DNA from: Mesostigma viride
Lineage: Eukaryota; Streptophyta; Mesostigmatophyceae; Mesostigmatales; Mesostigmataceae
Assembly (NCBI GenBank): GCA_009746045.1
Contig: RPFO01000059.1
Location: 124,001 to 188,000, forward strand
Length of the DNA stretch: 64,000 nt
Direction: 5' to 3'
Positions 11,813 through 56,238 of the stretch are shown here, piece after piece; position 1 is the first letter of the stretch; every line of letters begins with the position of its first letter. Made by a program: the position numbers and the translations under genes. The notes below the pieces were generated by a model. The model saw only the letters and a list, made by a program, of their open reading frames with translations, did not search any database and had not been told where the DNA came from.

Positions 11813-12143
11813 TGAAGAAATCAGTGTCTGATGTTTACAAAAACTCGATTTTTTTCGTGAAAATTAATGGTGTTTGTGCAGTCCCGCACTTGGTCATACA
11901 CTAATGGTGTATCTTACCGGTAATGCTTTTGGAATTAGTAACTATACGGTGAAGGCGTCATCTTAGTCCGTGTTGCTAGCGTTTTACGTTTTCTGTATCG
12001 CGATAGCTTGTCTCTAGCCACAGGTGGTCGATATCGCCTGCCGCAGGCTGTTCTGTGAGGTCGGAATACAAGCCTTACATTCACTGGTTGCCGCCTCTCA
12101 CCAAGCCTAGCGGATCTGGAAGCCCCAAACCATCATTTAAGCC

Positions 12144-21950: not shown

Positions 21951-21953
21951 TTC

Positions 21954-22551
21954 GGCAGTCCCCTATTCGGAAATCCCGGATCATATGTACTCCACACTAT
22001 GTACTCTTGGAGTACATAGTGTGCCACCCTATGTACTCTTGGAGTACATAGTGTGGAGTACATAGTCACTCCTTCTTATGTAATACGGGCGTGTCTCACC
22101 GCGTCGGCAGTCCCCTATTCGGAAATCCCGGATCATATGTACTCCGGACTATGTACTCTTGGAGTACATAGTGTGCCACCCTATGTACTCTTGGAGTACA
22201 TAGTGTGGAGTACATAGTCACTCCTTCCTATGTAATACGGGCGTGTCTCACCGCGTCGGCAGTCCCCTATTCGGAAATCCCGGATCATATGTACTCCGGA
22301 CTATGTACTCTTGGAGTACATAGTGTGCCACCCTATGTACTCTTGGAGTACATAGTGTGGAGTACATAGTCACTCCTTCTTATGTAATACGGGCGTGTCT
22401 CACCGCGTCGGCAGTCCCCTATTCGGAAATCCCGGATCATATGTACTCCGGACTATGTACTCTTGGAGTACATAGTGTGCCACCCAATGTACTCTTGGAG
22501 TACATAGGGTGGAGTACATAGTCACACCTTCCTATGTAATACGGGGGTGTA
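21954..22551. repeat. Tandem repeat, exact 152-bp period, four copies with nested palindromes
   Basis: The word GGCAGTCCCCTATTCGG starts at 21954, 22106, 22258 and 22410, giving a constant 152-bp spacing. Each unit contains two copies of the palindromic word ATGTACTCTTGGAGTACAT plus further GAGTACATAG arms, which could fold into hairpins. The near-identity of copies implies recent amplification. The last copy is the most diverged. Confidence 0.9.
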
Positions 22552-24090: not shown

Positions 24091-24885
24091 ATCATGGATG
24101 GATGGATGGAGGGAGGGAGGGAGGGAGGGAGGGAGGGAGGGAGGGAGGGAGGGAGGGAGGGAGGGAGGGAGGGAGGGAGGGAGGGAGGGAGGGAGGGAGG
24201 GAGGGAGGAGGGAGGGAGGGAGGGAGGGAGGGAGGGAGGAGGGAGGGAGGGAGGGAGGGAGGGAGGGAGGGAGGGAGGGAGGGAGGGAGGGAGGGAGGGA
24301 GGGAGGGAGGGAGGGAGGGAGGGAGGGAGGGAGGGAGGGAGGGAGGGAGGGAGGGAGGGAGGGAGGGAGGGAGGAGGGAGGGAGGGAGGGAGGGAGGGAG
24401 GGAGGAGGGAGGGAGGGAGGGAGGGAGGGAGGGAGGGAGAGGGAGGGAGGGAGGGAGGGAGGGAGGGAGGAGGGAGGGAGGGAGGGAGGGAGGGAGGGAG
24501 GGAGGGAGGGAGGAGGGAGGGAGGGAGGGAGGGAGGGAGGGAGGGAGGGAGGAGGAGGGAGGGAGGGAGGGGAGGGAGGGAGGGAGGGAGGGAGGGAGGA
24601 GGGAGGGAGGGAGGGAGGGAGGGAGGGAGGAGGGAGGGAGGGAGGGAGGGAGGGAGGGAGGGAGGGAGGGAGGGAGGGAGGGAGGGAGGGAGGGAGGGAG
24701 GGAGGGAGGGAGGGAGGGAGGGAGGGAGGGAGGGAGGGAGGGAGGGAGGGAGGGAGGGAGGGAGGGAGGGAGGGAGGGAGGGAGGGAGGGATGGATGGAT
24801 GGATGGATGGATGGATGGATGGATGGATGGATGGATGGATGGATGGATGGATGGATGGATGGATTGAATTGAATTGAATTGAATT
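24091..24885. repeat. GGAT/GGGA microsatellite with a GAATT run
   Basis: (GGAT)3 leads into about 690 bp of (GGGA)n broken by phase slips (GGAGGA), then about 74 bp of (GGAT)n at 24789-24863, then (TTGAA)4. All the long Arg/Gly/Glu or Pro/Ser/Leu frames across it are artefacts. It separates the 5' end of LINE element 1 from the 3' end of LINE element 2. Part of it is probably the 3' tail of element 2. Confidence 0.9.
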
Positions 24886-28499: not shown

Positions 28500-29390
28500 G
28501 ACAGGCTGGCACATGTCACCTGGCATCCACGTATGCTCACCCCAAGGCATTGGCATATCCCCATGTCTATATCCGTTGCCCTTTGTGCGTACCGAGTCAC
28601 CCATGCAGTCACCCACCCATGCATCCACCTGGCCCACCCACACAAGTACTCATACACTTGCGCACCTGAGTACCCAGCCACCCACTGGTCCACCCACCCG
28701 GTGACCCAGCCAGCCAGCCACGCACCTACTAAACCAACCTATCTAACCACTCGTGCACCCAGGCACCCAGCCACATACCCACCCACTGGGACATCCACCC
28801 ACCCAGCTAGCCACATATGCAATCTACCCACCTAGGCAATAAGGAGGCATTCACCCATCCTTTTATCCAGGCACCCATTACTAAAACCACGCAGCCACCT
28901 AACCACCCAGCCAGCTGGCCCCATGTGTGCCCACCGGGCCGCCCACCCCTGACCCACCCACGCCCCTTCCCACTCGACCACTCTTTCCCCCCATACCCTT
29001 ATACCCACCGACCTGCACCCACTCACCCTCACACATCCACATCCTCTCAGCCAGTCACCCACCCATCTCACCCCTAACATGCACAGCCCTCCACCCGCGA
29101 TAGGTGAGTCGATCCCAACTACAAAACCACCCACCCACCCATATCCGTGCACCCACCCACCCATCTACCTTCCCCATCGCTCACCCCACCCACTTCTAAT
29201 CACAGCTACACATCCACCCGCCACAAACCAACGGTGCAAATCCTCCAGCCCATGAAACAGTTTCACTCAGGCATCCAACAATGCACCCACCTAGGAGTTC
29301 CCAAACCCCGTCGATCCCCCAGCCACCTGGCGATTCACTTATAAGCAACCACCCTTGCACCCATCCACCCACCATAACCACCCACCCACC
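28500..29390. repeat. CCCA/CACC-rich degenerate minisatellite
   Basis: About 800 bp is dominated by CACCCACCCA, CCAGCCAGCC and ACCCACCTA words with little other content. It looks like a decayed simple repeat. Frames across it are Pro/Thr/His-rich and not credible as proteins. Confidence 0.65.
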
Positions 29391-29522
29391 CTCCCTCCCT
29401 CCCTCCCTCCCTCCCCCTCCTCCCCCTCCCTCCCTCCCTCCCTCCCTCCCTCCCTCCCTCCTCCCTCCCTCCCTCCCTCCCTCCCTCCCTCCCTCCCTCC
29501 CTCCCTCCCTCCCTCCCTCCCA
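29391..29522. repeat. (CCCT)n microsatellite
   Basis: Tandem CCCT with slips (CCCCCTCCTCCCC) over about 130 bp. It is the complement-type counterpart of the GGGA tract at 24.1-24.8 kb. Confidence 0.9.
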
Positions 29523-29540
29523 CCACCCCACCCACCCACC

Positions 29541-30235
29541 CTCTCCAACTGCATGTGGACTGCCTCTCCCAGCGACTCGGCCAGCCGTTTGAGTGTGTTT
29601 GGGACCATATGCTGATGCCCATGGATATTACGCGCGCCATCAACCAGGCAACACCAGTGACACTTGAGCTCCTTGTTATCCTTCTCATCGGATGTACTGA
29701 CGACACCCTGCACAATTACAGCTCACAAGGCAACTAACATGCTGGAGGAACGCATCCGCCGCAGTGGACGTCAGTAACGGATGTTGCAATGTTGCTGGAG
29801 GGAGGTCAATCGACCGCACCCGTACATACAAGGGGCAATTATTGATGCGTCATACCCAAAACAGGAAGAAAATGTGGCACAACTAACCTTGCCATCAACA
29901 TGGATGGACGGAGTTGGAGACCAACTGCAGCGCGGCATTCGCAAGGGCACAGGCTGTGTTGTTCAGCAGGTCCACCGCTGGACTGCCCGATGCCGAGTCC
30001 AGGTTCTTCCTTACACAAACTCTCCACAAGCGTGATTGTCGCGTCCTTGGCTGCCAACTGCGGAAAGGAGGCCAGTGCTCGCTTCAGCAGGAACTCGGCA
30101 ATTGCAATCACGGTGGGCCCTGGCACGATTTGCAGGCCTACACATGCTTGCCCCGCATGTGCCTCCCCCACGTGTGCATCCACCGCAGTTGACGTGCTTG
30201 CTCGCAGCTCCCACTACCGCTGGCTTCGTTGCCAT
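29541..30235 (-). CDS. Possible two-exon gene fragment of unknown family
   Basis: On the minus strand, about 29713-29540 encodes STSDEKDNKELKCHWCCLVD, then GARNIHGHQHMVPNTLKRL and AESLGEAVHMQLER up to a GTGGGT donor. About 30183-29890 encodes a smooth, non-repetitive stretch (GPTVIAIAEFLLKRALASF, then LAAKDATITLVESLCKEE) reaching a possible donor near 29890. Amino-acid usage looks like real protein, unlike the surroundings. It could be a captured host exon pair or remains of the element's own protein. The CHWC motif might bind metal. Joining and start are not established. Confidence 0.3.
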
Positions 30236-38871: not shown

Positions 38872-39628
38872 CCATCCATCCATCCATCCATCCATCCATC
38901 CATCCATCCATCCATCCATCCATCCATCCATCCATCCATCCATCCATCCATCCATCCATCCATCCATCCATCCATCCATCCATCCATCCATCCATCCATC
39001 CATCCATCCATCCATCCATCCATCCATCCATCCATCCATCCATCCATCCATCCATCCATCCATCCATCCATCCATCCATCCATCCATCCATCCATCCATC
39101 CATCCATCCATCCATCCATCCATCCATCCATCCATCCATCCATCCATCCATCCATCCATCCATCCATCCATCCATCCATCCATCCATCCATCCATCCATC
39201 CATCCATCCATCCATCCATCCATCCATCCATCCATCCATCCATCCATCCATCCATCCATCCATCCATCCATCCATCCATCCATCCATCCATCCATCCATC
39301 CATCCATCCATCCATCCATCCATCCATCCATCCATCCATCCATCCATCCATCCATCCATCCATCCATCCATCCATCCATCCATCCATCCATCCATCCATC
39401 CATCCATCCATCCATCCATCCATCCATCCATCCATCCATCCATCCATCCATCCATCCATCCATCCATCCATCCATCCATCCATCCATCCATCCATCCATC
39501 CATCCATCCATCCATCCATCCATCCATCCATCCATCCATCCATCCATCCATCCATCCATCCATCCATCCATCCATCCATCCATCCATCCATCCATCCATC
39601 CATCCATCCATCCATCCATCCATCCATC
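38872..39628. repeat. (CATC)n microsatellite, about 757 bp
   Basis: This is an uninterrupted perfect tetranucleotide array between a LINE polymerase remnant and a LINE 3'-end sequence. The long Pro-Ser-Ile-His and Met-Asp-Gly-Trp frames are artefacts. The perfection suggests a young or actively slipping array. Confidence 0.95.
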
Positions 39629-40589: not shown

Positions 40590-43500
40590 TTACAGTCTCC
40601 TAGACACTGCGATGACCATTCGAGCGAGCCTCTGGAAAGCCTCAGCTGTGTGGCGAAGCTCCGCCATGATGCCAGGTGGCACATTCCCACTGTACCACCT
40701 GGACACCATGTCATGCGTCAGGGCAATGGCAGGATGGCCAATCGCTTGGGCTGCCGCAACCAATACCGTAACCTGCTTTAGGAATGGGACGACCATCCGG
40801 TCATCACTATCGCGCAGGAAGAGGGCTCGCACATCCCTGCGGATCTCCATCCCATCATCTTGCACCAGTCGTTCGACCAGGTTGTAGAACACGGCGTGGT
40901 CCCTGACCATCTGCTGATTCCCTACAGGGCCCGCGACCTTGATGTTGGTCATCAAGAAAGGAAGCAGCTTAGTAGGCTTGTCGAAGAAAGTGTACGGTGC
41001 GTACTCGTTGGATAGCCTGGCGGCTAGCTCGCGGTTGTGCACAGTGGCCTTGTGGTCTATGAGCCTGCGGGTGTGCGATGTATGACAAGGACCAAAGTTT
41101 TGACAGACATCTGTGTAAGCTCGTGCATGCACATGACAAGTCAAATGCATTATAGTGCTCCACAATCCACAGCATCCTGCGATTTACCAATAGGAGCGCT
41201 GCTCCGAGCAAGAGCATAGGGAACGATGTTATGCTGAGTGTAGACACGCATGCATCTACGATATAGGGATTACAGACAGACACTCCTTTGAGCTCTCTCT
41301 CTCTACACACACACGTGTGCAAACTTGTCTTCTCCGCCACACCCCTGCCTCAATTCTTATTCCCAACTTTCACAAACAGTATTGACAGTTGCGAGGCATG
41401 GATAACATGATTTGGCAATCATCTTTCTGCCCGGAATAGCAAAGGCATCACCAGACGAAACGCTGACTCAACCGGCAAAGATGACGTGTGATATTTTCTG
41501 ATGTGAATTTTCACACAGTTACGAGGAACAAGATACTGGACAAAAGGGCTCACCCTGGCATGACTGTCTCCAGCAGACCGGCCACTGATGATGCCGAGAA
41601 GAAGTCCGGCATGAAGGGGGGGATGATCATGTCCAGGCTGGCCAGCAGGACCTCGTTCGCGACGCCTTTGCTCGGCCCAAAGTCGCAGACCATGTACTTG
41701 ATCCCGTGTTCCTTTGCAATCTCGGTCAGGGCCTTCCGGAAGCCCCCCAGGACCATGAAGGCGTCCTCTTGGCCAATATTATGAACGGCGGCACGCGCGT
41801 TTATGAATCTGGTTTCCAGGGAGGAGCCCAGGTCCTGGTGGCCTGGGATCAGGAAGAGCCCGTCCGGCAGGTCAGGGTACATGGGCTCATCGTTGCCATC
41901 TCTCCTGGCCGCGAATTCCAGGATGCCAGGGGTGCCACGCGCTGATCTTCCAAGAAAGGATGACAGCAGGATCTCCTTGATGGTGCACTCGTATGCGTTT
42001 CCATTCCGGTCAAAGGAACCCTTCCTGCACACGTCCACGTTCAGGTCCGCCAAGAACCCATCGGGCACATGGTACGACCCCAGCTTTGGCCTCCTGCTCG
42101 CCCGCGATAAATTCAACGGAGGTGTGTCGTCATCCGCATAATCCGTTTGCGGGTTGGTTGAGGCCTTCACCTCCCTGGCTTCAGCTTCTGTGTTAAAGTA
42201 CTTGGTCAAATTGCACTGGGAGTCGCAGTCGACGTAGCAGGTGCGGTGGCCAGCATTCCGGAGCGCAACTCCCACGTTGATCGCGATAGTGGTCTTGCCC
42301 ACCCCCCTGCCCAAGAAAAAAAAATGGAAGACTCGCAGGTAAAACCTTAATCAGATACGGCATGCAAAACGAGGCACCCCGGGATGACATCTTGGCTCAA
42401 ACCTGGTTGAAAAGCCCAGATAAATGCACATCTTGTTAACAAGGTACATCATACGTGGAGCACATCTTAGAGTGTGCAAAATGCAAGCAGAAGCCATTCC
42501 TATCACACGATTACTACCCTGCCTGGACACCACTAGGCAAGGCATTCCTCACAGGAAGTGCCATAGACGATAGTGCCACATGTCAGCTGCTGCGCAGGGG
42601 CTAGAAGGGAGCCTAGCTCCTGCAACGCAATGGCTTTCCCTGAAAACTTTCCCTGCATCCGTTTGCAGGCTACATGAAAATCAGCCTCGGCTCAGGAGAA
42701 TGTAGGCCGAAAATGAGAGTACCTCAAGTTTTGCGCACATTTCATCAAATTTGGTACAGCTTGCCCAGGCAGTCACTGCATATAATTTTAGAAAAAAAAA
42801 ATTGCCTCGGATTCCCTACTTGCAGACAGCAAAATGGTAAAGGATGAACCTGGATGCCACGGCCCAGCATACTATGGTGAACTGCTGAGGTCATGACATG
42901 AGCTACCCGCATAATGCCAGGTGCCACCTTGTTTGATTGGTACAATCTTGCGCCGGGTGGAAAACGAGCGAAGGTAAGGAGAAGAATACACATTGTCAAC
43001 TGCAGAGTGCAGTGTGAGGCTGTCAAAAGCCCAAGGTAAAACTAGCAAAATGGCCACCACCAGCTGTTCCAAGACCAGTTGTATGCAGTACACCGACCGA
43101 CTCACTGCCGAAGCCGCAGCAGCTGCCGCTGCCACCGCTGGTGCTGCAGTGGGTAGTGCTGCTGCAGAAAGCAAAACGGATTATTGCAAACCCATTGCCT
43201 CATCGAGATGCTGCCGATACAACAAATAGCCCAATGGCGAAGAAATCATGCACTTGATTTCGGTTTTGCTTGCGATGAATAGGCCATATTAGCATATGAC
43301 CCAACAACAACACCAGCTGTCGTAGAAAGCAGCCAGCAAGGCTTTACACCCCCCAAAAGACCTTTGTTGTTCTTTTATACAGGACCTGCCATGAAACCAT
43401 ACAGCAGCTTTGTTGGCAAACCTGCAATTTTTTCTTACCATTCCAGCCAATGCTCTCCGAGGTTTAAGCCACTGAGATGTTGCTGTCAAAGGGGCCTGGC

Positions 43501-46500
43501 GTTTTATTTGCTAGCAGGGAAAAGCAGCATCACCAAATGGCATGCAGGCGTGATACAGAACATTCCCAGGACTCCTTGATGCTGAGCAGCTCGCAAGTCA
43601 GGCAGCGTTTTGAACACATCCCACACTGCTATGGCTGCTTAGTGATTGTATTACATCCTGTTTACATCCCGAGATTGCCTGGCAAAATGGGTTTACCTTG
43701 CGGCTAGTATGTCGCATGCTACAAGGACCTGACACAATAAAAAACGGGGTCAGTAATATGGCAAGCCATGCTGATGACCTGGTCATACAATGAGGGCACA
43801 CCGCCGCAGCGCAGCAATCATCACAACCATGATGACCTGCTCTGCAAGAGACCATCGATGCAAACAAGCTTACCCCTTGAAGTTGTAGCAGCCAAGCAGG
43901 ATTGGGTACGGCTCTTGGGCTTCCTGAAGAGGCTCCTTGTGCAAGTATGCATTTTCAGCGTTCTTCTTTGCCTGCGCTTTCCCAACGGCTGGTTGGCTAC
44001 CAGCACCCATCGCCTTGGAAACGGTATCCTGGGCGCTGGCCCCTTCCTTCTTCGGCTCCTTTGCAGCTGCTTTGCCCTTGCTAGCGGGCTCTCCCGGCGC
44101 CTCTTGGTCGGCTTTCCTCTTGGCCACCTTGCTTTCGCTTGGCTGGGCAATCTACGTGCATATGGACAAGGGGAAAACATGCAGGCAGAATCCACACAAG
44201 GGAACCTTGGCATTAGCAGGGAACACGTAGGCGTTATGCAGACAATGTGCAGCACAAAACACGGTGGATGTCCCATAATAGAGGGAGGAACCGTCATGTC
44301 AGTATGCCACACCCTCCTGGACTGTATGGACACTGTGGCATTTGCCAGCCAGCCACAGTAGCTGTGACGGTATCACGTCAGCCACACCTTCCAGGGGCTT
44401 GCACAAACATGGCAGACGTCCTAGGCTCTAAACATACTTAATGACCCTCAGCAAAATGGCTGCAGCTTAAGCATTCTAGGGCATGATGAGTATTTCCTAA
44501 GTTGGTGTGTAAGGTTCTTGAAGCCAAGCAGTTAGCCTCAGATAGCAGGTTTTAGGGGTCACTACATCACTCCAAGTGCTGGTAAAGGCATGGATAGAAT
44601 CCCACTTTAGCTGTCCTGAGGATGTGAATGGGTTGTCACGAGCTCGTCAAGCACCAAATTCGCGATGCAAGTAGGTCTTCGGTGAATGCAGGAGAGCACC
44701 GCCAGGCATACCTGTATCTGGTCCATGCTTGCACGGCAGTACTAGTGGGACCAGCTCGCAAGCCCCCTAGCCGGGATGGTAGAGCACTAACCTACGCAAG
44801 TAGAGGAACACAGAACCAGGTTGCCTGGCATGCCGACTGACTCATCAGTGGCCAAACACGCCGCTTGCACAGGCTGAAATGTACGATACCTCGGCGCTGA
44901 TCCATGCCCTCATTTTGCCCATTGCCCTCACCTTTGCCAGGTAGATTTTGCGCCCCTTAATGAGACAGCGGAGCACCTTTCGCTCGATGCGGTCTTCTAT
45001 CTGGCTGCCGTCTGCACTGTACTCGTTCCGCACCTCCCTGTACTCGTTCCGCACCTCCCTTAGCCTGAAAAGGTTCTCCGACGCGTATATCTGGTACTTG
45101 CGCATCGCTTTGGCGATGTCGGCATTGTTGCCCTGCAGTCATCATTGGGTGGGGGGTGGGGAATGGGAGGCACAGGGAGGAGGGGTGCCCCACTCAGTGT
45201 AAGGTACCCTGGGTCCTACGGCACTTCCCGGGGACTGCCGACGACGAATAAAAAGCAATCGCCTAGCAAATTCCGGAGCTCCCTCCGCACCATTTTGGGG
45301 GACGGAGACTGTAAATCAGGACTGGGCACCACAACACAGCCCAATATGCTCCAATATGGCTCGCGCTCGACCCGCCGGCCTGGCGCGTAGGTTCAGCAGG
45401 CTCCAGCCGGCTCTTCATGCTCATCGCATGCAATAATGAACAATGGTCAGCGGCGGGAGTTTTGCGAAGTGCACCACAAAATACCACAAGCTGCCACAAC
45501 TCCACAAGACTACCACAAGACTAGTACCACAAGATGTGGTTGCTCCCCCCGTCCATACTGGACGACGACCGACATCAGTCCAGTAAAACCCGGAAGTCCT
45601 TCCGGCCAGCCACTTGGACGACGACTGTAACTTGGAACTCCATCCTTTCCTCCAACTGGACTACGGAACCCATTTGGGGCTAACCAACAGGCTCCTTCCC
45701 ATCCAAAAGCGGGATGACGGGGACGACACCGGAACGAGCACAATGGCTGATGGGGACCCCTCCTCAGGGAGAGCAAGGAGGTGAGCCACAGAAACTTATT
45801 TCTTGCGGACTTTCTGGCCAAATGTATGAATACCAGGCCAACTGCCATCAGAAGTAATATATTCTGCAGTCCTTGACTAATGACAACGTGACACATGTGA
45901 AACTAGGCACACACGCTACTCTGGCACTGGAAACGTACAACTTTCGTTGATTGCCTGGAAGAGCATTAAACAAAACCTGCTGAACATTAAACTGGGCATC
46001 TTCCCTCCAATTGTTGCATAAACCTGAAAAAAACTAACAGCTGCATAATTTTCTTCAGTCCAGAAGCGAGAAACCTGAAAAAAGGCCCAAAGGGCAATAA
46101 TTATAGTCGATAATTGAACCCCGGCCTAGCCTGTCAGGTTGAGAATCAAACGTGCAAGCTAAGTGCAATTGGTGAAAGGATGGGTGGGCAACTGGGTGGG
46201 GTTCAATAACGCTAATAATAGCAAGTGAGGGGCTGGAGTTGCCATGAGCGCTACGGGTTTGATATGGCAGGTACACAAATGCCAGGTTTACTGAGGTAAT
46301 AATGACTGGCATGCAAGCTGGGTGTGCGGTGCAGGTGCACCAATGATGCATCAGCGGATGGCAACCTAGACAGGCAGAGGTGCAGGAAAATCACCGTTCA
46401 AATAACAAACTGCACAGGAGGTCATGCCAACCCAACTAGAACTCTGGGTGTTATGGAGTTGAGGAGGTGACACACCACAAGAAGAGACCGGCAGCTGACG

Positions 46501-49500
46501 CTGAGGGATGTCGGCAGCTGGCTTGTGCATGACGCTAGCATACCTCGAACCCCTCCTCCAGCGCCATCAGCTGGCAGAAGACAAGGAACTGTTCCAACCG
46601 GTCACGCAGGGGCTTGTCCTCCTTGGCGAGCCGTACTAGCACGAACCGGACCATCTCCAGATCTCCATCCCCTTCGCCGAGGGTCAGCTGCATCCAGCAA
46701 ACCAGCACTGGCTCAAACTCCTTGTTGGCTGCATAGTGCGGCGCCAGGCAGGGCAAGGCGAGCAGATCTGCCAGCCCATAGAACTTCACCACGTGGGACT
46801 TGGAGGCGTGCATGTCGCCCGTGGCACGTCTCTGGTCGGTGTCAAGCGCGGCTTGCAGGAGGGACAGCACCTCACAAGCAATCTCCTCCTTCGTTGCATC
46901 AGATGCGACCTCTGTACAGATTTGAGAAGGCAAACGAAAACGCCGCAGGGGGGGGGGGGGGCAGATCACCAAATTTGGGAACAAGGAATAGGCAGGGTCA
47001 GTAAAACATGCTGGCACTGCACAGGTCATGGCCGGTGCATGCATCATGCTGAGGATGCATGTAGCTAGCTGCCTCCGCTATACATAAAAGGCTCTCCCTG
47101 CTAACAGAGAGAGTCCCAGGGCACACAGGGATAGCCCAGCACATGCTGCATGCTGGGCAAGATGCCTGCTAGTCAACCCATCAGGCAGAACTAACCAACA
47201 TTGGCTGAGACTAGACATCAAAGCAAAAAGCATTCTGCACAGGCGGAACATGACAAACAACTCAAAGGTCTAAAGGCCATAGTTTAAAGACGAAAACAAG
47301 GCTGCGGAGACTGCATTGTGGCATTTACCTACGGGGGTAATTGCACTAGCAGCTGAATCCGGTACAAGATGCCACGTAGTAACAAAGCAGCATACCATGA
47401 CCATGGGTAAGCAACGATCATTCGAGGGTCCCTTCAACGGGGTCGATGTGGAAAAGTGCCTCTTGGCGTTGTCACCCACCTTGCGAACTATGACTGCAAT
47501 TCTGCACCGATTCCCATATGGGCGAATAAAACACAGTTTTTCAAAGCCCCACAACCGGCTCACCCTTCTTAACACCTGCACCCATTGCACCATGTCAAAC
47601 ACAGTGCCTCACTTGCATATGCTAAATAAAGTAGCTTAAAGGCATGGTACCTGGCTTCTCGGCATGTCCATTCGTATAGCTTATTGCCCAATACCTGGCC
47701 TCCTGGCCTTGAACTCCTGCAGCAGGCTCAGCTTCCTGAAGCTCTCTGTCTCCAGATCCACCAGCCGCTTCATCAGCTTAGCCTCACTCCCCTTCCCGTT
47801 CAGGCCATGCCAAGTGCAGTACTCAGAGAGCTTCTCCCTGGAGCGGCAGCTTGGTGGCAGCGCCTCCCACACCCCCTGGATCTTCACCGCATCTTTCAGC
47901 AGGAGAATCTGGGCCACTTCGGGTTTTCTTTTCCTAGACAGTCCTCGAATCCCCTTTGCTTCCGCCAGTGTAGTCAGTTGATCCGCGGTCAGGCACAGCA
48001 GCGCGGTCAGTGCGAGGGGCACGTCCATGGAGGCCAGTTTATGCTCAGGAACCGCTGCGAGCCAGGCTGGTAAGGATGCAGCAGCGGTTGTGCCAGTTCC
48101 TGTCCCTGTGGCAGCGGCAAACAGGGCCTCACCCCTGGCGTCGACCATTGATTGCTGGCAGTAAAAGCATAGCGTCGTAAACAACCCACAAAAACAAAGG
48201 CCATGTAAGTATCGATTACACCTGTGAGGGATACCGTCTCGCAGTGGGTGGGATCGGATGGAATGGCCATTCGGCAGATGAAGCCCTCGCAATGCTAATA
48301 ATAGTTGTTTGGTGTAGAGCACTTGCATAGCTGCTAAACATGTCTTTGGTGTATCATGGTCTCATGCATTCACCTGTGGAATTGTTCGATAAATACTACA
48401 CTTTGTTGTACAATTTTTTAATAAAAGCTTTTCCTTGTTGTTAAGTGCTTGCTAAGGCCCATAGCACCAAAATGAAAACACGGCAATACACACTACACAA
48501 GGACAGGCATTCATTGACGTTTTGTGCAGGTGGTCACATTCGGTTGGCGGAAGGAGAACTCAACTGCTGTGCTGTCAAGTTAAGGTGTCAGGACCGTGCT
48601 AGCTGGCTACGACAAAGCACCTCCACTTAAACCATTTTAGCACGTCAGAAAAATCACATGTGTAAAAGCTCACTTTCTTCCAGTACGTACAGTTGCCACA
48701 TGGTGAAACCTCGCAATCAGGAATACATACATATTTGAGTGAGAATACGTCCACCCGTGGGCGGGGATGACAGAGGGGCTCACCTGGGAAGGGGGCTGCG
48801 CCTGCTTCTGCTGTGGCGCCTGCTGCGTTCTTGGGGGGCTTGCCCCAGAAACGCCTCCGCGCAGAGGTGTCCTAGGACTTCCTGCTGAGGAACCTCGCAC
48901 GGGTGGATAGGAAAAAACATTATGATAACACCGCGCGTTCATCTTTTGTCAAATTCTGCCATGTCACCCCGCTATTACTACAGCCATGAAGCACACTGCA
49001 GCGCAGAATGCAATTTGTGAATAGAAGGCGCCTGGGATGGGACAGTGTACGGAAGGATTTCCATGTCTGCATTAGCCAGCTGCACAGATATGGGTAGTCA
49101 AACCATCGATTTAAAAAAAAGTTGATGGTGTGATGGTAGGTGGCAGGCAGGCCACCAAGCAGGCCTACTAAATGTTAGAATTAGCCTGCTACTCGTGCAT
49201 AAGAACATGCTTGAGTATTAGTTGCGAGATTCCTTTGCTGTGCTTCATATGCATCACCACAAGACATAACGTTCGTTAGAAAAGTGATGTGCTAGTTTCA
49301 AAGATAAACGTCACTGACTAATCGACCGGCCTAACTTTGGAGATCTCGCTGAAGTACAGACCTGGCACTTCTCTGTCGTACCTTTAGACCCCCTTTCTTG
49401 ATTGCCAGGGTTGGTGGCCTAGGCGGCAAGGTAAGCAACAACCTCCACTTGTCAAGGAAGCCCATTCTTATGGCATCCACTTTGGGGGCCGATGCAGCCC

Positions 49501-52500
49501 ATCGACTGCAAACTTATGTTATTAATACTCATGACCACCACAAGGTACATGGCAACACACGCTTACCTGAGTGTGTAGTTCTGGACACTGCTAAAATGAA
49601 CAAATAATAAGAAAACAACAAGAAAAAAATATATAGTAGCATGAAAGTAATAATAAATTATTACATCGGCCGGTGTAGTTTCTTTGTATATCAATTATAG
49701 TAGTAAGCAAACGATAAGAATCATGCTATGCTCACAAGCATCCGAGAATAGAAATATTTCTAATATATATATATATGGACATATTCATATGTCAGTATTT
49801 GGTCCTGCGTACGTGCATGCAGTGCACACTACTGTACATAATTGGATGACGTGTTTTCTACTCATCTTACAGCACACATGCCTCCTCTGGGTACCCAAAA
49901 TAGGAAGCAAACAACGAAGTTAAAAACAATCCCCTTTGTGCTGTCAAACCGTCCATTTGTCCACGTAAGCGGTCATTGACATAATGATGAGGACGGGTAT
50001 AGTTGTATATGATAAGGACAAGGCGCTGGATGGATAAAATGATCAACAATTGTTTCTCAGTAGAATGGTAACTTGGTCACACCTGTGACCTTGCTTACGG
50101 AGTTGTGCACGGTACCAAGAGAAAATTAACAATATGAGGCACTGTATATGAGAGAACATGAACAATGGTGATCCATGGGTTACGTACATGCAGAAGTACA
50201 AATAATCCAAATTCCCAAGCCAAACATCATTTCAAAGTCAAGTTTATGGACTAGCTTCATGCACACGCAGATCTTCATGCTGCCCTTCAGTTCAGTTCAG
50301 GTTATTCCCACGCCGGTTGTCCAATAGAGTTATTAATAGTGGTTCATGCTGCCCTACCAGCTTGGCTGCCTCGGGACTGAACCAGCTTGTGCTCGATGAT
50401 TCGCAGGAACTTGCTGAGATCTGCTTCGCCGAAGTTGTCAGTGTCGGAGTCAGAGTCAGAGTCGGAGTAGTAAAATTTCTTTATATTTCCATGCAGCAGC
50501 CCGCCTTCACCGAGCTGGCTTTCTGCAGTCTTCTCAATGTTGCCCTTGACGCGTGCCAGGTCATCGAGCGGCAGTGACAGGATTAACTCCTTCATCTCCG
50601 CAAGGCCCTGCCGGGGGTCGCCACACGAAGCCATGAAGTGTTTTCAACCAAAAGAAGATGCCAGCTACGAGATGCTTACTTGGATGCCGGGATATTCCAC
50701 CTGCCTAAGTGCTACTTGCCGGGCCCCGCAGCTTCCATGCCTCCCCCTTAGATCAGCCACGCAGCAACGTGGCCTCCCGGTGCCTCTTTCCCTCCTTGAA
50801 ACTATGGAACATAAGCCCACGCTCGTGCCCTGTAGGAGCAAACATCCCATTTGACAATGCGCAAAGTCCTCTGTCCCTACTGTATGGTAGGGTCTTTATT
50901 TGCGGTATCTCACGCTTTCTCAACTTTGCACAGAAAATGCACAGTTAGCAACTGAACTGTGCACATCATCATGCTCTGCAAAGCTCCGCCAATTCTAGAG
51001 CACACACACACAACAGAGGCTACAATTGTACGCTATAAACTGCAGACCGAAAATTGAAAGGAATTATTTTAGAACTTCATTTTCACCCTGTAGTGCACTT
51101 GTTGCATTTGTCCAGAAAAAAGCATAGACACAAGTGCTACATATGCACGCCAACATTAAGGCTTTTTTCTCTTGGACCGAGGCTCGGACTATGACTTGGT
51201 CATGTGATAACGGGATAGATCCTTTGTGGGCGTTGACATTCTTGTCAGCATGCGCTGCCATGAGCACTTAACTAAAACAGTGTGTCCGATTACTGAGCAA
51301 TGCACCTCCCATTAAGATTTCTCGGTGTGATGGGCAGCAGATGGAAGAACGTAAGAATATGGCCTTGAATGGTGCCAAGATAACCACCAAGTCATCCCAG
51401 ATCCTTGCGGTTCAAAGGTAAAAGAAAGGTCTCTGACACTGGTCATGTCAAATGTGAGAAAAGCCTGTCAAGACGCAAACACAAGCATATGTGCATGTCA
51501 TTAACCTACGCTTGCTACCTAGTGGCGGTGAGCCAAACTCCCACACAACTGCACTAAAAAAATAAAAGGCAGCATATGTTACCAACTTCCCTGTTGTACT
51601 TACGTAGCTGCATGGCAACAAAGTTACCATGCATATTCCAAAGTCAGCTGAGGGTCAGCAAACGTTCAAACAGGCTGGTTATTAGCCTTGTCCCCCACAG
51701 GTCGTAATTGCATAACTGCTAGTAATAGCAACATACAAAGACTAGTAAGCATGAAGTCTTCATATCCACTGCAGTAATTTTCTCTTCGAGTGCCTGCTTC
51801 GTAGTACACACATCGACCAAAATCCTGCAACACCAATGACTTGTTGGACCAACATGGACCCCAGAAGGTGACTTGGGTAGAAACCTGTTTTTGACACTCT
51901 GCCCTAATATATATCTACCCATCCAATCGATTCCTCCAGATGGCCATAATGCCCAGCCCTGGTTAGCAAACCAAAACTCAAGGATGGTGGTTATCATCAT
52001 CATCGGGAGAATTAGGATCGTCCTTCCGTCTAGACCTCTCCCTGCTGATACTGTTCAAGAATATAAATGCAAGAGTTTTGCCTCATTTCCACCGGTTATC
52101 CTTCCCCGTCATTCCCCACGTCCACCACGACTCTAAAAGGAACGGGTCGGGGGGGGGCTAGCTGGAGATGGCAGCAACCACGTTCAAGGCAATAGTAGTA
52201 AAGTAAGCAGGCTACTTGCTGAAACTACTGCTAAGCTGAAAAATTAAGTCACTGGGCTTACTATATAGGACAGTGAAGCAAAATCGGGATGCAAAGCTGG
52301 TGCAGCATATTTGGCTCACACGACCACATACCTCGCCGAACCGCATCGAGCGAAGAAGGCAACATGCCAGCAGCCTGGGCACACATGGCAGCTGGTGGAC
52401 CTCCTCAAAGATGCGTGCTTGGATCGCCATTTCCAGGAGGGAGACACACACATCCTCTGTGGTTATGCGGTCAATGGGTTCCACACCCTCTGGGCTGATA

Positions 52501-53710
52501 CCCCCAACTGCTTCTGCGCCCACACTCCCCAGCCATGCACGGGCCACGTCAAGAAACGCATTCCTGTCCGCGACCAGATCATTTTCCAGCCCCCCAAAGC
52601 ACACCGCATCGGCCACGAAATCCTTGAACGCGTGCGGCGGCGCGGCGCTCATCCCTGGGACATTCCTGGCGTCGTTGTCTGCGGCCTGCTTCATGAGCTC
52701 CAAGATCTTTGCTGCGAACAGCCTCCTGCGCTTCTTGGGCATCTTCTTAGCTGCATAATCCAGCAGGCAGAAGAAGGTGCGCTCATGGGAAGGTTTGAAT
52801 TCGTCTGCCAGCACGCACCAGGGGGTTGCTTAAAATGAAAGATCTCTCCCAGACTGTGTGGACATGCTGGCACATGGAATTTTCCATGATAACATATAAC
52901 AAGGGGGGGGGGGGGAGTTCTTAACAAGCGACGACGATGAGATCAAGCAGATGGGGCTGGTAGCTTCCGCCCACAATGTCTGCAATACAATAGACAAGGC
53001 CTGGTAAGGGACCACCTTGCTCATGATTAACGGGAAAGACTCATGCAACCAATCAGCATGTCTTGGGCAGCGCGCAGCATGATTTTGGTGACGGGTACAA
53101 GGCTGGGGGTTGTTAACTTGTAACACGTGGCAGTAGGGTTGCTATGTGCCTGTGTTTTGGGGAAAAAGCCGTGAGCTCAAGTGTCCGACGGCATCCCAAC
53201 AAGCTATATATACGCATCATTGCATGCCTTACATGGATCATCTTCACCAGTATAATCCAGCCAGTCACCGTCACCAGTATCCAGCCACCGCAACTCGAGG
53301 ATCTCGACGACGTTGGCCAGGTAGGTCTTGTCATGGGCGCGTAACCTGCGCTGCAGGTCAGCCTCGCCACCTGTCGTTGGAAGACCCAGCCTCTTGCAGT
53401 AGCCCATCAGCTGTTCCACCCCCCAGCACTTAAGGTCGAGGAACACCGCGTCCCAGACGGCCTCCGCTTCTGTTGTCTGCCCCAGCAGTGCCTCGATCAA
53501 ATATGGCTTGTTATCGGATGGTCGGGCTCGAGTAGCAAACCGCACGTGAACATTACTGTACTCTTTGCATCGTTTATTTAGCTGTTTTGCCGTTAACAGT
53601 TCTAGAATAGACCATGCTGAGGGAATGACCAGGTGCTGCAGCTCTGTCTCCTTTCTCTTCAAGACGCTGGTCAAGCTCAGTGGCGCGGTGTCCTCCACGG
53701 TGGCTGCCAT
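40590..53710 (-). CDS. SAP-domain/ParA-type ATPase fusion protein (1274 codons, ten exons)
   Basis: Exons: 53710-53233, 52804-52332, 50607-50358, 48881-48784, 48154-47695, 46911-46544, 45132-44932, 44142-43874, 42306-41554, 41064-40590. All introns are GT-AG, every phase agrees, and the sum is 3825 nt with a TAA stop. Residues 1-159 hold two SAP-like helix pairs ([40 protein letters not shown]). Residues 160-317 and 318-400 are helical. Residues 401-433 form a Pro/Gln/Ser exon that the paralogue lacks. Residues 434-586 carry two more SAP-like motifs ([40 protein letters not shown]). Residues 587-776 are helical and 777-860 are a Lys/Ala linker. ParA/MinD motifs: KGGVGKTT (865-872), VDCDSQCNL (891-899) and CDFGPSKG (about 1073-1080). 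SAP domains usually bind AT-rich DNA and ParA ATPases move or position DNA or protein cargo. A role in DNA tethering or segregation is inference. Confidence 0.85.
41554..42306 (-). other. ParA/MinD ATPase exon of the SAP-ParA gene
   Basis: This 251-codon exon carries nearly the whole ATPase core. The previous exon supplies [12 protein letters not shown] and this one begins with GVGKTTIAINVGVAL, so the Walker A loop is split by an intron after the GG of a glycine codon. The deviant Walker A' (YVDCDSQCNLTKYF) keeps the Asp and Gln of the DxDxQ signature of ParA/Soj. Walker B is KYMVCDFGPSKG. The final IIPPFMPDFFSASSVAGLLE matches the vPxxPxxxsxxgl helix. A large insert of about 90 residues (TDYADDDTPPLN to YPDLPDGLFLIPGHQD) sits between the two halves. 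The signature lysine of MinD/ParA (KGG) is present, so ATPase activity is plausible. Confidence 0.85.
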
Positions 53711-54085
53711 ATAATTGTTGCGGATATTCACTTCCACGGCCAGCAGTTATGGCCTATGGGCGATCGACGAGCAGATCTAACATCTGTTACCCGTTATGGG
53801 AGGTAATGCCGGCTTTCCCCAGCGCTGATCATCCCGAACTGCCCACCGCAACCCGAAACACCATGCAGGAAAGGTCTATATAATAGCTAGCTAGCTTAAC
53901 CATTACCCATCACGAGTTTCACGACCATCATCGCCAACAGCGGCATCCTCCTGTCTCCGCCCACCATTCATTACATGTTCTGCAGCATGATTGTGACTAC
54001 CCAACAACGCAGTCGCAGCTCTAGCTAACCTGGAGTCGAAATTTGGCTTGTAACCAGGTTGTAACCTGGTTGTCACAGGAAAATT
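53711..54085. promoter_or_regulatory. Left part of the shared intergenic region of the divergent SAP-ParA pair
   Basis: The two paralogues start at 53710 (minus) and 56239 (plus), so this 2.5-kb interval must contain both promoters. I saw no clear TATA box or shared motif by eye. This section is non-repetitive apart from TAACCAGGTTGTAACCTGGT at 54051-54070. Confidence 0.35.
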
Positions 54086-54087
54086 TC

Positions 54088-54775
54088 CGGTCCACCAGGG
54101 GGGGTGGAAAAAAACAAGAAAATTTACATCATGCTGGATTCGAGTAGATCTCGCCAAAACAAGCATGTTTGCCACTGGTCGCAACCCCAGGGGGTCTCTA
54201 GGTTGGAAGTTACAGAGCCTCAAAAACCGTTAACTTAAAGGGTAGGTAGGTAGGGTGCCGGGCCGATATGGGTTTTTTACAACAAAACACTTGGATTTTC
54301 TGCTAGCTCCCTGTATGGTCGGAATTTTGAAACGGTTTCACGGACAAACTGATAGCACTTGGCGAGCTGAACCCAAATCTGCAGTCAAAATTTTGGCAGG
54401 TACCATAGAGGGGGGGGGGTTGCCCGCAAGATGGTGCTGCCCCTAGGCACGGAAGTATGCTGCCGTCTGCCACCACTACAAGCCTTCGGCTATCCAGCGG
54501 CGTGCCGTGCCAGTATCGCGTCGCGCCGGCCAACGACCCATTTAAGAAAACCGGAATTTTCCCATACACCAATATGCTCAAACGGTAGAGCTCGCGGAGC
54601 TGATCATTTTGCACCCTAGGTCGACCCCTAAAACCCTTGGGACCTCAGGGTTTTGCTAGGTATAGCGCCTAGGTGCTAGGTAGGTAGGGTCCAAGGGCCA
54701 ACTTTTGGAAAATTTCAGCATGGTGTCTGATATTTTTGTTTTTTCCACCCCCCCTGGGTCCACCTAGATAATTAT
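54088..54775. mobile_element. Possible foldback/MITE-like element with imperfect 48-bp inverted ends
   Basis: The left arm reads GTCCACCAGGGGGGGTGGAA, then AAAAACAAG and ACATCATGCTG (54090-54132). The right arm, read on the other strand, has GTGGACCCAGGGGGGGTGGA, then AAAAAACAAAA and ACACCATGCTG (54773-54715). GGTAGGTAGGG occurs near both arms at 54242 and 54679. No coding region or clean target duplication was seen. Confidence 0.5.
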
Positions 54776-54810
54776 GCATAATTTAATGGCCTCAGCGGCT
54801 CAGCCCTGCC

Positions 54811-55146
54811 TCAGCGGGAAATAAACGGGTTCAGCAATACTGTGTAGTGAAATTTTTTGGTACGCCGTACGATACATACATACTGGGTACACAGCTGACA
54901 CCGCCGCTGGGTAGCCCCAGCCCCCGGGCCGGCGGGAAGACCACTCATGAACATGGTTGGCGCCGCTCTCAAACAACTCTTGCGCGCGTCCTGGCTCTTG
55001 CGCCCGTCCTGGCTCTGGCGCGCGTCCTGGCTCTTGCGCGCGTCCTGGCTCTTGCGCGCGTCTTGGCTCTTACGACCGGCTTCGGCCTCCACCACGGCCA
55101 GACCATGCTCCATTAATTTATCGACCAGAGCGCGCTCCGTCGCCAA
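54811..55146 (-). CDS. Small ORF with RKSQDA repeats, hypothetical
   Basis: This is a 111-codon ORF from the ATG at 55146. It starts with a plausible helix (MATERALVDKLMEHGLAVVE), has six copies of (R/G)KSQDA, then a Cys-containing tail (RRCQLCTQYVCIVRR). The repeats are encoded by an 18-bp minisatellite, so the frame may be fortuitous. It lies between the two divergent SAP-ParA genes. It might be an exon of a third gene. No family was recognised. Confidence 0.28.
   Translation of the reverse strand: MATERALVDKLMEHGLAVVEAEAGRKSQDARKSQDARKSQDARQSQDGRKSQDARKSCLRAAPTMFMSGLPAGPGAGATQRRCQLCTQYVCIVRRTKKFHYTVLLNPFISR
54978..55078. repeat. 18-bp minisatellite (CTGGCTCTTGCGCGCGTC)
   Basis: There are about six copies with minor variants (CTCTGGCGCGCG, CTCTTACGACCG). 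The period is a multiple of three, so an open frame is kept through the array. Confidence 0.8.
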
Positions 55147-56238
55147 AATTCTGGCGTTGGATCCGGTTGCCAGTTTTACAACTAACTACATCACCACTGT
55201 AGACTCCCGAGTGATCAGTGACGGAGTCTGCTGTTTTCAGTGCGTAGTCTGGATGTCCCTCGTCCTGGTGTGATGACGATCCTCATCAACAATTGAGTCT
55301 CACGAATCGCCCTGGAGTCAGCAGTTTGCAGGTTTACCCTGCAAGGTCGTGGTCATCCCGGTGGTGGTCTGGTGCCTGGTGGACAAATGATTAATGAATA
55401 GATATCTGGGTAACCATTGAGCCAAATTTTAGCATGCTACGGCGTGATAATCAGAGATAATCAGCGGTACCCGCTGGCATGGCAGTGGGAAACTTTTTAT
55501 GTAGTCTGTGAACCAGGTGTGAACCAACAATGACTTCTAAAGGTAAACGCGCCGCTTTGGGCGTCATGGCAAGCATTGCCTCCAGCTAGACGCCGGCCGC
55601 CGCGATCTCGTTGTTGGCAGCCACGTGCAAGGAATTTGCATTCAGGGTTCATATGCATTAGGCGGTAAGCATATTGGTCGGTGGTGGTGCCGCCGTTGGT
55701 GGTTGTCGTTGTGATGGGTGGTTGTCGAGGCGCAGCTAGGCATACCTTGTGTATTAGGCTGCGGTGGGCTGGTCCAGGACGGCGGGAAAAGCAGCCCCGA
55801 CGTTCACCGCCATCACCGTCCCGCAGCAACAAAGCCGATCGACATGCAGGCCATTTATACCCTAGTGCACCTTATAAATATTGTACATGTACATATGCAT
55901 ACATATTCATGAATTTTTTTACGGCAGAAATACTCTGTTATCCAGCTCGATTCCTGGCAATAGCCTGTACTAACGCGTATATTATCAGCAAGCTGCCGTC
56001 ACGCAATATTGGATAATAACAGTACATCATTAACATTAAAGGAGACTAATTGCTTGTGCATGCATGCCCAGCTGCCCACTATAAGCTGCGTAGTTGGATA
56101 GTGATGTTTGAGCCGCTATTGATAAATTATCACGTGGTCCGCTGCCGGCAACGCGCATGCCTGCAATTCCACCTCTTGTATCCGTAATGTTACAGTTGGC
56201 ACGCTCATAAACAACTCCTTGTCCTGCAAGCTCGCGAA
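55147..56238. promoter_or_regulatory. Upstream region of the plus-strand SAP-ParA gene
   Basis: No supported gene. AT-rich stretches with ATTCATGAATTTTTT (55905-55919) and TACATGTACATATGCATACA (55883-55902) precede the start at 56239. It presumably includes the plus-strand promoter, but no element was identified with confidence. Confidence 0.3.

What the first reader, a model, noticed from the sequence alone, without database searches (positions are those of the whole stretch)
40590..53710. A four-SAP-motif protein fused to a complete ParA/MinD ATPase in an intron-containing nuclear gene
Ten exons splice in phase into 3825 nt with no stop. Sequence shows four SAP-like motifs, helical regions, a Lys/Ala linker, and KGGVGKTT, VDCDSQ and CDFGPS motifs. 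Established knowledge: ParA ATPases partition plasmids and chromosomes in bacteria, MinD-type ones position division sites, and SAP motifs bind DNA. I know of no named family with this architecture. Inference: a DNA-tethering ATPase, perhaps from a plasmid, virus or organelle system that gained DNA-binding domains, possibly aiding persistence of a selfish element.
Basis: partly seen in the sequence, partly recalled or inferred. Interest (0 to 1): 0.9.

Follow-up and report, generated by a model that had tools for sequence, protein, structure and literature searches.

The report
SAP-ParA fusion gene in an alga
A green alga, Mesostigma viride, carries in its nucleus a real intron-split gene joining DNA-binding-like SAP motifs to a bacterial-type ParA ATPase, and the ATPase looks closer to bacterial proteins paired with toxin-like genes than to the ones that sort plasmids.

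Summary
Ten GT-AG exons on the minus strand (53710-40590) rebuild, letter for letter, a public Mesostigma viride protein (Mv14064, 1257 aa). A head-to-head paralogue (Mv14065, from 56239 +) shares six of six comparable donor phases. Mesostigma has at least 12 annotated loci with this ParA; four carry SAP-like motifs.

The partition interpretation is only partly supported. In a 99-row tree the algal clade sits with bacterial ParAs whose next gene is a HEPN, SIR2, RelA/SpoT or cyclase-like protein, not with ParB-linked ParAs (100/99). The switch motif agrees: DxGPS in 18 of 18 algal-clade rows, Dx[GS]PS in 35 of 35 effector-linked, 0 of 16 ParB-linked. An AU test does not fix the exact branching (p 0.26).

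Best reading: a nuclear, nucleic-acid-anchored ParA-type ATP switch, probably domesticated from a conflict-type ParA. Location and function are inferred, not shown.

The parts
53233..53710 (-). Exon 1 (start codon at 53710): SAP1 and SAP2, 159 aa
   Evidence: model block means of pLDDT 90-95 over residues 81-130
53480..53599 (-). SAP1-like motif (weak; carries an insertion)
   Evidence: alignment to the other repeats; no Pfam match
53333..53425 (-). SAP2 motif (best supported)
52332..52750 (-). Exon 2: helical module 1 (public model starts at 52750; an acceptor at 52804 is also in phase)
50358..50607 (-). Exon 3: acidic/helical linker
48784..48884 (-). Exon 4: Pro/Gln-rich linker; an annotated isoform (Mv14064-RA.3, P0002) starts upstream of it (48942)
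47695..48154 (-). Exon 5: SAP3 and SAP4
   Evidence: similar to exon 1
47900..47992 (-). SAP3-like motif
   Evidence: sub-threshold Rho_N 17.8 of 24.9 bits
47762..47842 (-). SAP4-like motif
   Evidence: alignment only; no SAP match
46544..46911 (-). Exon 6: helical module 2
44932..45132 (-). Exon 7: holds an in-frame 21-base tandem duplication (45017-45060); absent from isoform RA.3
43874..44142 (-). Exon 8: Lys/Ala linker with a basic cluster (AKRKADQE) and start of the ParA domain (...YNFKG)
41554..42306 (-). Exon 9: ParA core (GVGKTT, VDCDSQCN, CDFGPS)
40590..41064 (-). Exon 10: ParA C-terminal part and stop codon
56239..63198 (+). Head-to-head paralogue Mv14065: SAP1-4, helical modules and linker exons; its remaining ParA exons are not found in the window and should lie beyond its end
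   Evidence: tblastn of P0003; exon model with GT-AG junctions

Best explanation
It is a nuclear gene of Mesostigma viride, one of at least 12 annotated loci of a family of ParA-fold ATPases found as one clade in this alga; four members have N-termini with SAP-like motifs. Shown: gene structure, complete ParA fold with intact ATPase motifs, and a tree position and switch motif on the side of ParAs that in bacteria are encoded next to toxin-like effectors. Probable: a SAP fold in at least one motif. Inferred: SAP modules hold the protein on DNA, chromatin or RNA in the nucleus; ATP-driven dimerisation of the ParA domain acts as a switch; the family was domesticated from a conflict-type (ParA plus effector) ATPase rather than from a partition ParA, and now senses or regulates something at the nucleic acid, controlling a partner yet unidentified.
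Against: The AU test does not reject a tree with the algal clade outside all effector-linked ParAs (p 0.262), and the quick tree, which had no ParB-linked rows, does place it outside the bacterial effector-linked rows. An effector next to the algal genes was not shown: the window's own genome could not be searched. SAP1, SAP3 and SAP4 are below threshold. Net charge of the SAP1-2 piece is -2, of SAP3-4 +6. The basic-cluster pattern was widened after a stricter one gave only 4 of 12, and in Mv14064 itself 81% of shuffles hold such a cluster. NCBIfam's ParA_partition model is far from met (37.7 of 180). For the algal proteins nothing shows ATP hydrolysis, nucleic-acid binding, location or a role in conflict.
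Confidence: 0.42

Rival explanations
1. Ordinary chromatin-bound housekeeping ATPase: the ParA domain organises or positions host chromatin or a nuclear complex, with no link to conflict.
For: SAP-like motifs and basic clusters; purifying selection between the two window paralogues; ParA dimers binding DNA is established knowledge for Soj/ParA.
Against: With SAP motifs it was found only in Mesostigma within the limits; the family is expanded and partly degenerate, unlike a conserved housekeeping gene; the nearest bacterial ParAs are mostly effector-linked.
Confidence: 0.27
2. Partition or tethering ATPase of a selfish element, virus or organelle nucleoid that gained SAP modules.
For: The fold is that of ParA/Soj partition ATPases; PHROGs names its family ParA-like partition protein; SAP could tether a replicon to chromatin; the AU test leaves a position next to ParB-linked ParAs open.
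Against: 16 of 16 ParB-linked ParAs lie across a 100/99 branch and none has Dx[GS]PS; the 15 best plasmid matches cover only 12-17% of the query around the P-loop, and 0 of 149 records cover 80%; no eukaryotic-virus relative recognised.
Confidence: 0.18
3. Gene-model artefact: SAP exons and ATPase exons belong to different genes, or bacterial contamination.
For: Large introns; the annotated isoform RA.3 starts at exon 4; read-level RNA evidence was not seen.
Against: The public proteins Mv14065 and Mv25623 also join SAP3-4, helical module and ParA in this order; donor phases of the two window genes agree; spliceosomal-type introns speak against bacterial DNA.
Confidence: 0.05
4. MinD-, MipZ-, Get3- or Fe-S-carrier-type ATPase rather than ParA.
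Against: ParA/Soj chains are best by Foldseek and VIA-align, 3pg5 and Soj by phmmer; NCBIfam MinD, Get3 and ArsA models are far below cut-off.
Confidence: 0.04

Closest known systems
ParA/Soj chromosome- and plasmid-partition ATPases (HpSoj 6iub, TtSoj 2bek)
   Different: DxGPS where the ParB-linked rows have P, M or H at the third place, a poorly modelled insert after DCDSQCN, no ParB partner known, about 420 aa instead of about 250, SAP modules, introns
3pg5-type bacterial ParA-like proteins (C. diphtheriae DIP2308)
   Same: Best sequence match in the PDB (E 6e-11) with the DxGPS switch in the alignment
   Different: No SAP part in the 361-aa chain; Corynebacterium relatives (L157, L173) group with SIR2-linked ParAs
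HEPN (MAE_18760 family)-ParA/Soj dyads, postulated toxin-antitoxin (Anantharaman 2013, PMC3710099)
   Same: HEPN-linked ParAs are the sister clade of the algal one in the best tree (98/86); that mine are the same HEPN family as theirs is inferred
   Different: Two-gene bacterial operon; Dx[S]PS motif in 14 of 14; no SAP; an effector beside the algal genes was neither found nor properly tested
SAP domain proteins (PF02037; Hcc-1, SF3B2, 3'hExo)
   Same: SAP2 sequence and helix-extended-helix shape
   Different: No joining to a ParA ATPase was seen in the results here outside Mesostigma; these motifs come in pairs with a helical module, and the set is duplicated

Membership tests
ParA/Soj ATPase superfamily (AAA_31/CbiA) | Deviant Walker A K-G-G-x-G-K-[ST], Walker A-prime D-x-D, switch D-x-x-P | tested here: met
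   KGGVGKTT, VDCDSQ, CDFGPS; AAA_31 and CbiA above cut-off; alignments
ParA/Soj ATPase superfamily (AAA_31/CbiA) | ParA fold over the whole domain | tested here: met
ParA/Soj ATPase superfamily (AAA_31/CbiA) | ATP hydrolysis and ATP-dependent DNA binding | not testable with these tools
   needs purified protein
ParABS partition system | NCBIfam equivalog ParA_partition score | tested here: not met
   37.7 of 180 bits; a bacterial effector-linked ParA also fails it, 60 of 180
ParABS partition system | ParB partner and parS sites | not tested
   the genome could not be searched; directly downstream of nearest bacterial kin ParB-like in 0 of 76 loci, 15 without a called gene
ParABS partition system | ATPase groups with ParB-linked ParAs | tested here: inconclusive
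   100/99 split against it, but the AU test leaves p 0.262
MinD | Curated MinD model score | tested here: not met
   24.8 of 212.9 bits
SAP domain (PF02037) | Profile score at curated cut-off | tested here: inconclusive
   SAP2 alone 23.9 = 23.9; whole protein 15.8 of 23.9; the other three motifs no
SAP domain (PF02037) | Helix-extended-helix fold | tested here: inconclusive
SAP domain (PF02037) | DNA or RNA binding | not testable with these tools
   needs a binding assay
ParA-effector (HEPN, SIR2, RelA, cyclase-like) modules | ATPase belongs to the effector-linked ParA branch | tested here: inconclusive
   tree 100/99 and motif 18 of 18 in favour; AU test and the quick tree not decisive
ParA-effector (HEPN, SIR2, RelA, cyclase-like) modules | Effector gene adjacent | not tested
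   eight ORFs elsewhere in the window gave no such domain, far from a full test

The most novel reading that the evidence does not exclude
Mesostigma keeps a nuclear branch of a ParA-based conflict system: the ParA ATPase, whose bacterial kin may hold HEPN, SIR2, RelA/SpoT or cyclase-like toxins in check, has been fused to SAP modules so that it watches DNA in the nucleus and releases or controls an effector when foreign nucleic acid or a virus appears.
Probability: 0.18. Interest if true: 0.88.

Novelty: new variant of a known kind. Interest (0 to 1): 0.6.

Why it matters
ParA-type partition or switch ATPases are mainly a bacterial theme. A eukaryote that multiplied one into at least 12 annotated loci and joined some to SAP-like modules gives a case in which a ParA switch works, or was reused, perhaps on eukaryotic chromatin. 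The tie to effector-linked ParAs gives a testable link between bacterial conflict modules and an algal gene family, in an early-diverging streptophyte. It also draws together, under one ParA branch, four kinds of effector-like partners in bacteria, of which I found the HEPN one in print (PMC3710099).

Tried and rejected
Viral origin: four scans of viral contigs gave 0, 197 (80 kept), 18 and 1 relatives. By eye the fetched loci look bacterial or phage (compact genes, ParB, HEPN and the like); I recognised no eukaryotic-virus relative. Patterns were short, so distant relatives may be missed.

Plasmid origin: P0007 against plasmids gave 149 records, none covering 80%; the 15 rows listed match only residues about 30-121. 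Phages: P0015 gave 36 records, one covering 80%.

Other eukaryotes with the fusion: none, but each scored only about 8000 candidates sharing most words, and lengths were limited, so absence is weak. The ParA clade itself reaches Picocystis, Prymnesium and nine environmental rows in the first tree.

Known name for the architecture: Pfam, PHROGs, NCBIfam, PADLOC gave none. Papers: one search matched 'para' as a word start and is uninformative; one search listed nothing to the point; (ParA, SAP domain, ATPase) listed two unrelated papers. PMC7027972, passages only: no SAP; its 'para' matches were not informative. For ParA with several effectors: 0 papers; listings; passages seen in PMC3710099, PMC12111858 (irrelevant), PMC7159879 (MinD/ParA-like domains predicted inactive in other conflict systems), PMC5512222. 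I make no claim that these operons are unpublished beyond these searches.

Helical modules: no separate structure prediction (both jobs used), so their fold is open. Whether they could be HEPN was only looked at by eye; I saw no conserved R-x4-6-H.

Rows dropped and biases: the tree took ParAs by random quota per label (73 of 161 loci) plus 26 proteins; of the algal clade it left out P0002 (isoform), P0011, P0012, P0019, P0021 and P0038, and it left out P0039. Seven of its 18 'EUK' rows (P0014-P0018, P0020, P0022) are environmental without a named organism. Genome loci were the best 80 of 378, fetched with a query from this clade, so the downstream counts are of near relatives, not of all ParAs. 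Some viral contigs were fetched twice under two locus ids. Labels rest on blastp to seeds that I picked; 'CYC' is my label by eye and its representatives have no Pfam match and no NCBIfam match. itself warns of long branches.

Full report
What is there. The gene lies on the minus strand. Ten exons (53710-53233, 52750-52332, 50607-50358, 48884-48784, 48154-47695, 46911-46544, 45132-44932, 44142-43874, 42306-41554, 41064-40590) with GT-AG junctions give exactly the public protein Mv14064-RA.4 of Mesostigma viride, 1257 aa (P0001). A genome paper, of which I saw passages, combined ab initio, homology and PASA evidence with full-length isoform sequencing and says more than 90% of genes had expression support (PMC6947507); that this paper is the source of the model is an inference from its gene numbers. 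I saw no reads. That 'Mesvir1' is Mesostigma viride is recalled from the JGI code; the tool gives the code only.

A second copy stands head to head: Mv14065 starts at 56239 on the plus strand, 2.5 kb from the other start codon, and its exons up to about 63198 are in the window; the rest of its ParA part does not match the window in that place. Donor phases in Mv14065 are 1, 0, 1, 1, 0, 0; in Mv14064 they are 1, 0, 1, 0, 1, 0, 0, 2, 2. Six of six comparable donors agree if the small linker exon 4 is absent from Mv14065. Over pieces of six exons (679 codons, cut by tblastn ranges) dS is 0.57, dN 0.24, ratio 0.43 (0.35-0.52); by piece the ratio runs from 0.30 (SAP3-4) to 0.66 (exon 7). So the SAP and helical parts look to be under purifying selection; the ParA exons could not be included.

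Architecture. The N-terminus is a repeated unit: two SAP-like motifs plus a helical module (exons 1-2 and 5-6; first unit of P0001 against second of P0003: 27.5% identity, E 7e-9). Then come exon 7, a Lys/Ala linker and ParA. Mv25623 (49%) keeps one unit plus ParA, and Mv07314 has one SAP-like motif plus ParA. Eight further Mesostigma proteins have the same ParA without a recognised SAP part (P0006-P0013); one, Mv12748, has a ruined P-loop (RGDAGST). In the first tree all 12 form one clade (100/99).

Where the ATPase comes from. Beyond Mesostigma, the same ParA clade holds Picocystis salinarum, a Prymnesium MAG and nine environmental rows (96/94, 23 rows). A genome scan with four environmental members found 378 stretches encoding relatives; the 80 best were fetched, all from bacterial records, 23-33% identical apart from one short piece at 47%. 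Of 76 with a ParA ORF, the gene called directly downstream is HEPN in 44, cyclase-like in 11, SIR2 in 3, RelA/SpoT in 1, other in 2, none in 15, ParB-like in 0. Some of the 15 end at the contig edge; upstream genes were not examined. 40 of 44 HEPN ORFs start within 20 bases of the ParA stop, and 43 of 44 carry R-x4-6-H. Pfam confirms representatives: HEPN_RiboL-PSP above cut-off (one representative, L125, just below, 28.3 of 28.4), SIR2_2, RelA_SpoT; the cyclase-like label has no profile support. In viral contigs, of 72 loci of the second scan with a ParA ORF the labels are other 22, none 17, ParB 17, HEPN 5, RelA/SpoT 5, cyclase-like 3, SIR2 3.

A tree of 99 ParAs splits, at 100/99, 27 rows that include all 16 ParB-linked ones from 72 rows that include all 35 effector-linked and the 18 algal-clade rows; the best tree puts the algal clade next to the HEPN-linked one (98/86). 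The switch motif agrees: third residue G in 18 of 18 algal-clade rows, G or S in 35 of 35 effector-linked, P, M or H in 16 of 16 ParB-linked. Against this, the AU test does not reject a tree with the algal clade outside all effector-linked rows (difference 10.0 log units, p 0.262); the earlier quick tree, with Soj-like but no ParB-linked rows, has the algal clade (95) beside, not inside, the 94 bacterial rows (92); and some branches are long. HEPN-ParA pairs were described in 2013 as postulated toxin-antitoxin systems with ParA as antitoxin (PMC3710099, passages).

How it most likely works. Basic clusters precede the ParA domain in 10 of 12 paralogues against 3.63 expected from shuffles; a stricter pattern tried first gave 4 of 12, and for Mv14064 alone shuffles reach the wider pattern in 81%. 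I therefore place the protein in the nucleus, by inference only. SAP modules would anchor it to nucleic acid; the ParA domain would dimerise on ATP (established for ParA) and switch a partner. Whether the partner is an effector is open. Net charge is -2 for the SAP1-2 piece and +6 for SAP3-4, which neither shows nor excludes DNA binding.

Verdict. A real gene with an architecture for which I found no name; new variant of a known kind.

Noticed in passing
L098-L177 and L001-L097 (bacterial genomes and viral contigs), ParA ORF and next gene, e.g. L101:4983-6642, L112:4845-6641: One branch of bacterial ParA-like ATPases (Dx[GS]PS) sits in two-gene operons with different effector-like genes: HEPN, SIR2, RelA/SpoT, and a cyclase-like protein without Pfam match; effector kind largely follows ParA subclade (22 changes for 9 groups against 69 in shuffles). 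Looks like a ParA-based conflict module with exchangeable effectors; I found only the HEPN pair in print (PMC3710099).
   Followed up: partly
P0039 (environmental, 638 aa): ParA fused to a RickCE/Ulp1-type protease domain (PF22179, PF02902), again an effector-like partner.
   Followed up: partly
window 53711-56238: The two paralogues are divergently transcribed from a 2.5 kb spacer: an inverted duplicate that could share a promoter.
   Followed up: partly
window 45017-45060: In-frame 21-base tandem duplication in exon 7 (about two copies of REVRNEY), not seen in the Mv14065 exon.
   Followed up: partly
P0012 (Mv12748): Paralogue with a destroyed Walker A (RGDAGSTT) but other ParA motifs kept: a likely pseudo-ATPase.
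   Followed up: no
window 12141-14249 +: 702-aa open frame of leucine-rich repeats (LRR_4 E 1.6e-17), F-box/AMN1-like by eye.
   Followed up: partly
window 869-1609 -: cNMP-binding domain piece (PF00027 E 2.3e-9), probably an exon of a cyclic-nucleotide-binding protein.
   Followed up: no
window 24096-24863, 29381-29543, 38872-39628: Long four-base arrays (GGAG about 195 copies, CCCT about 41, CCAT about 189); GC skew is strong there.
   Followed up: no
window 21952-22550: About four copies of a 152-base unit containing repeated palindrome-like GTACTCTTGGAGTAC stretches, possibly a transposon-derived array.
   Followed up: no
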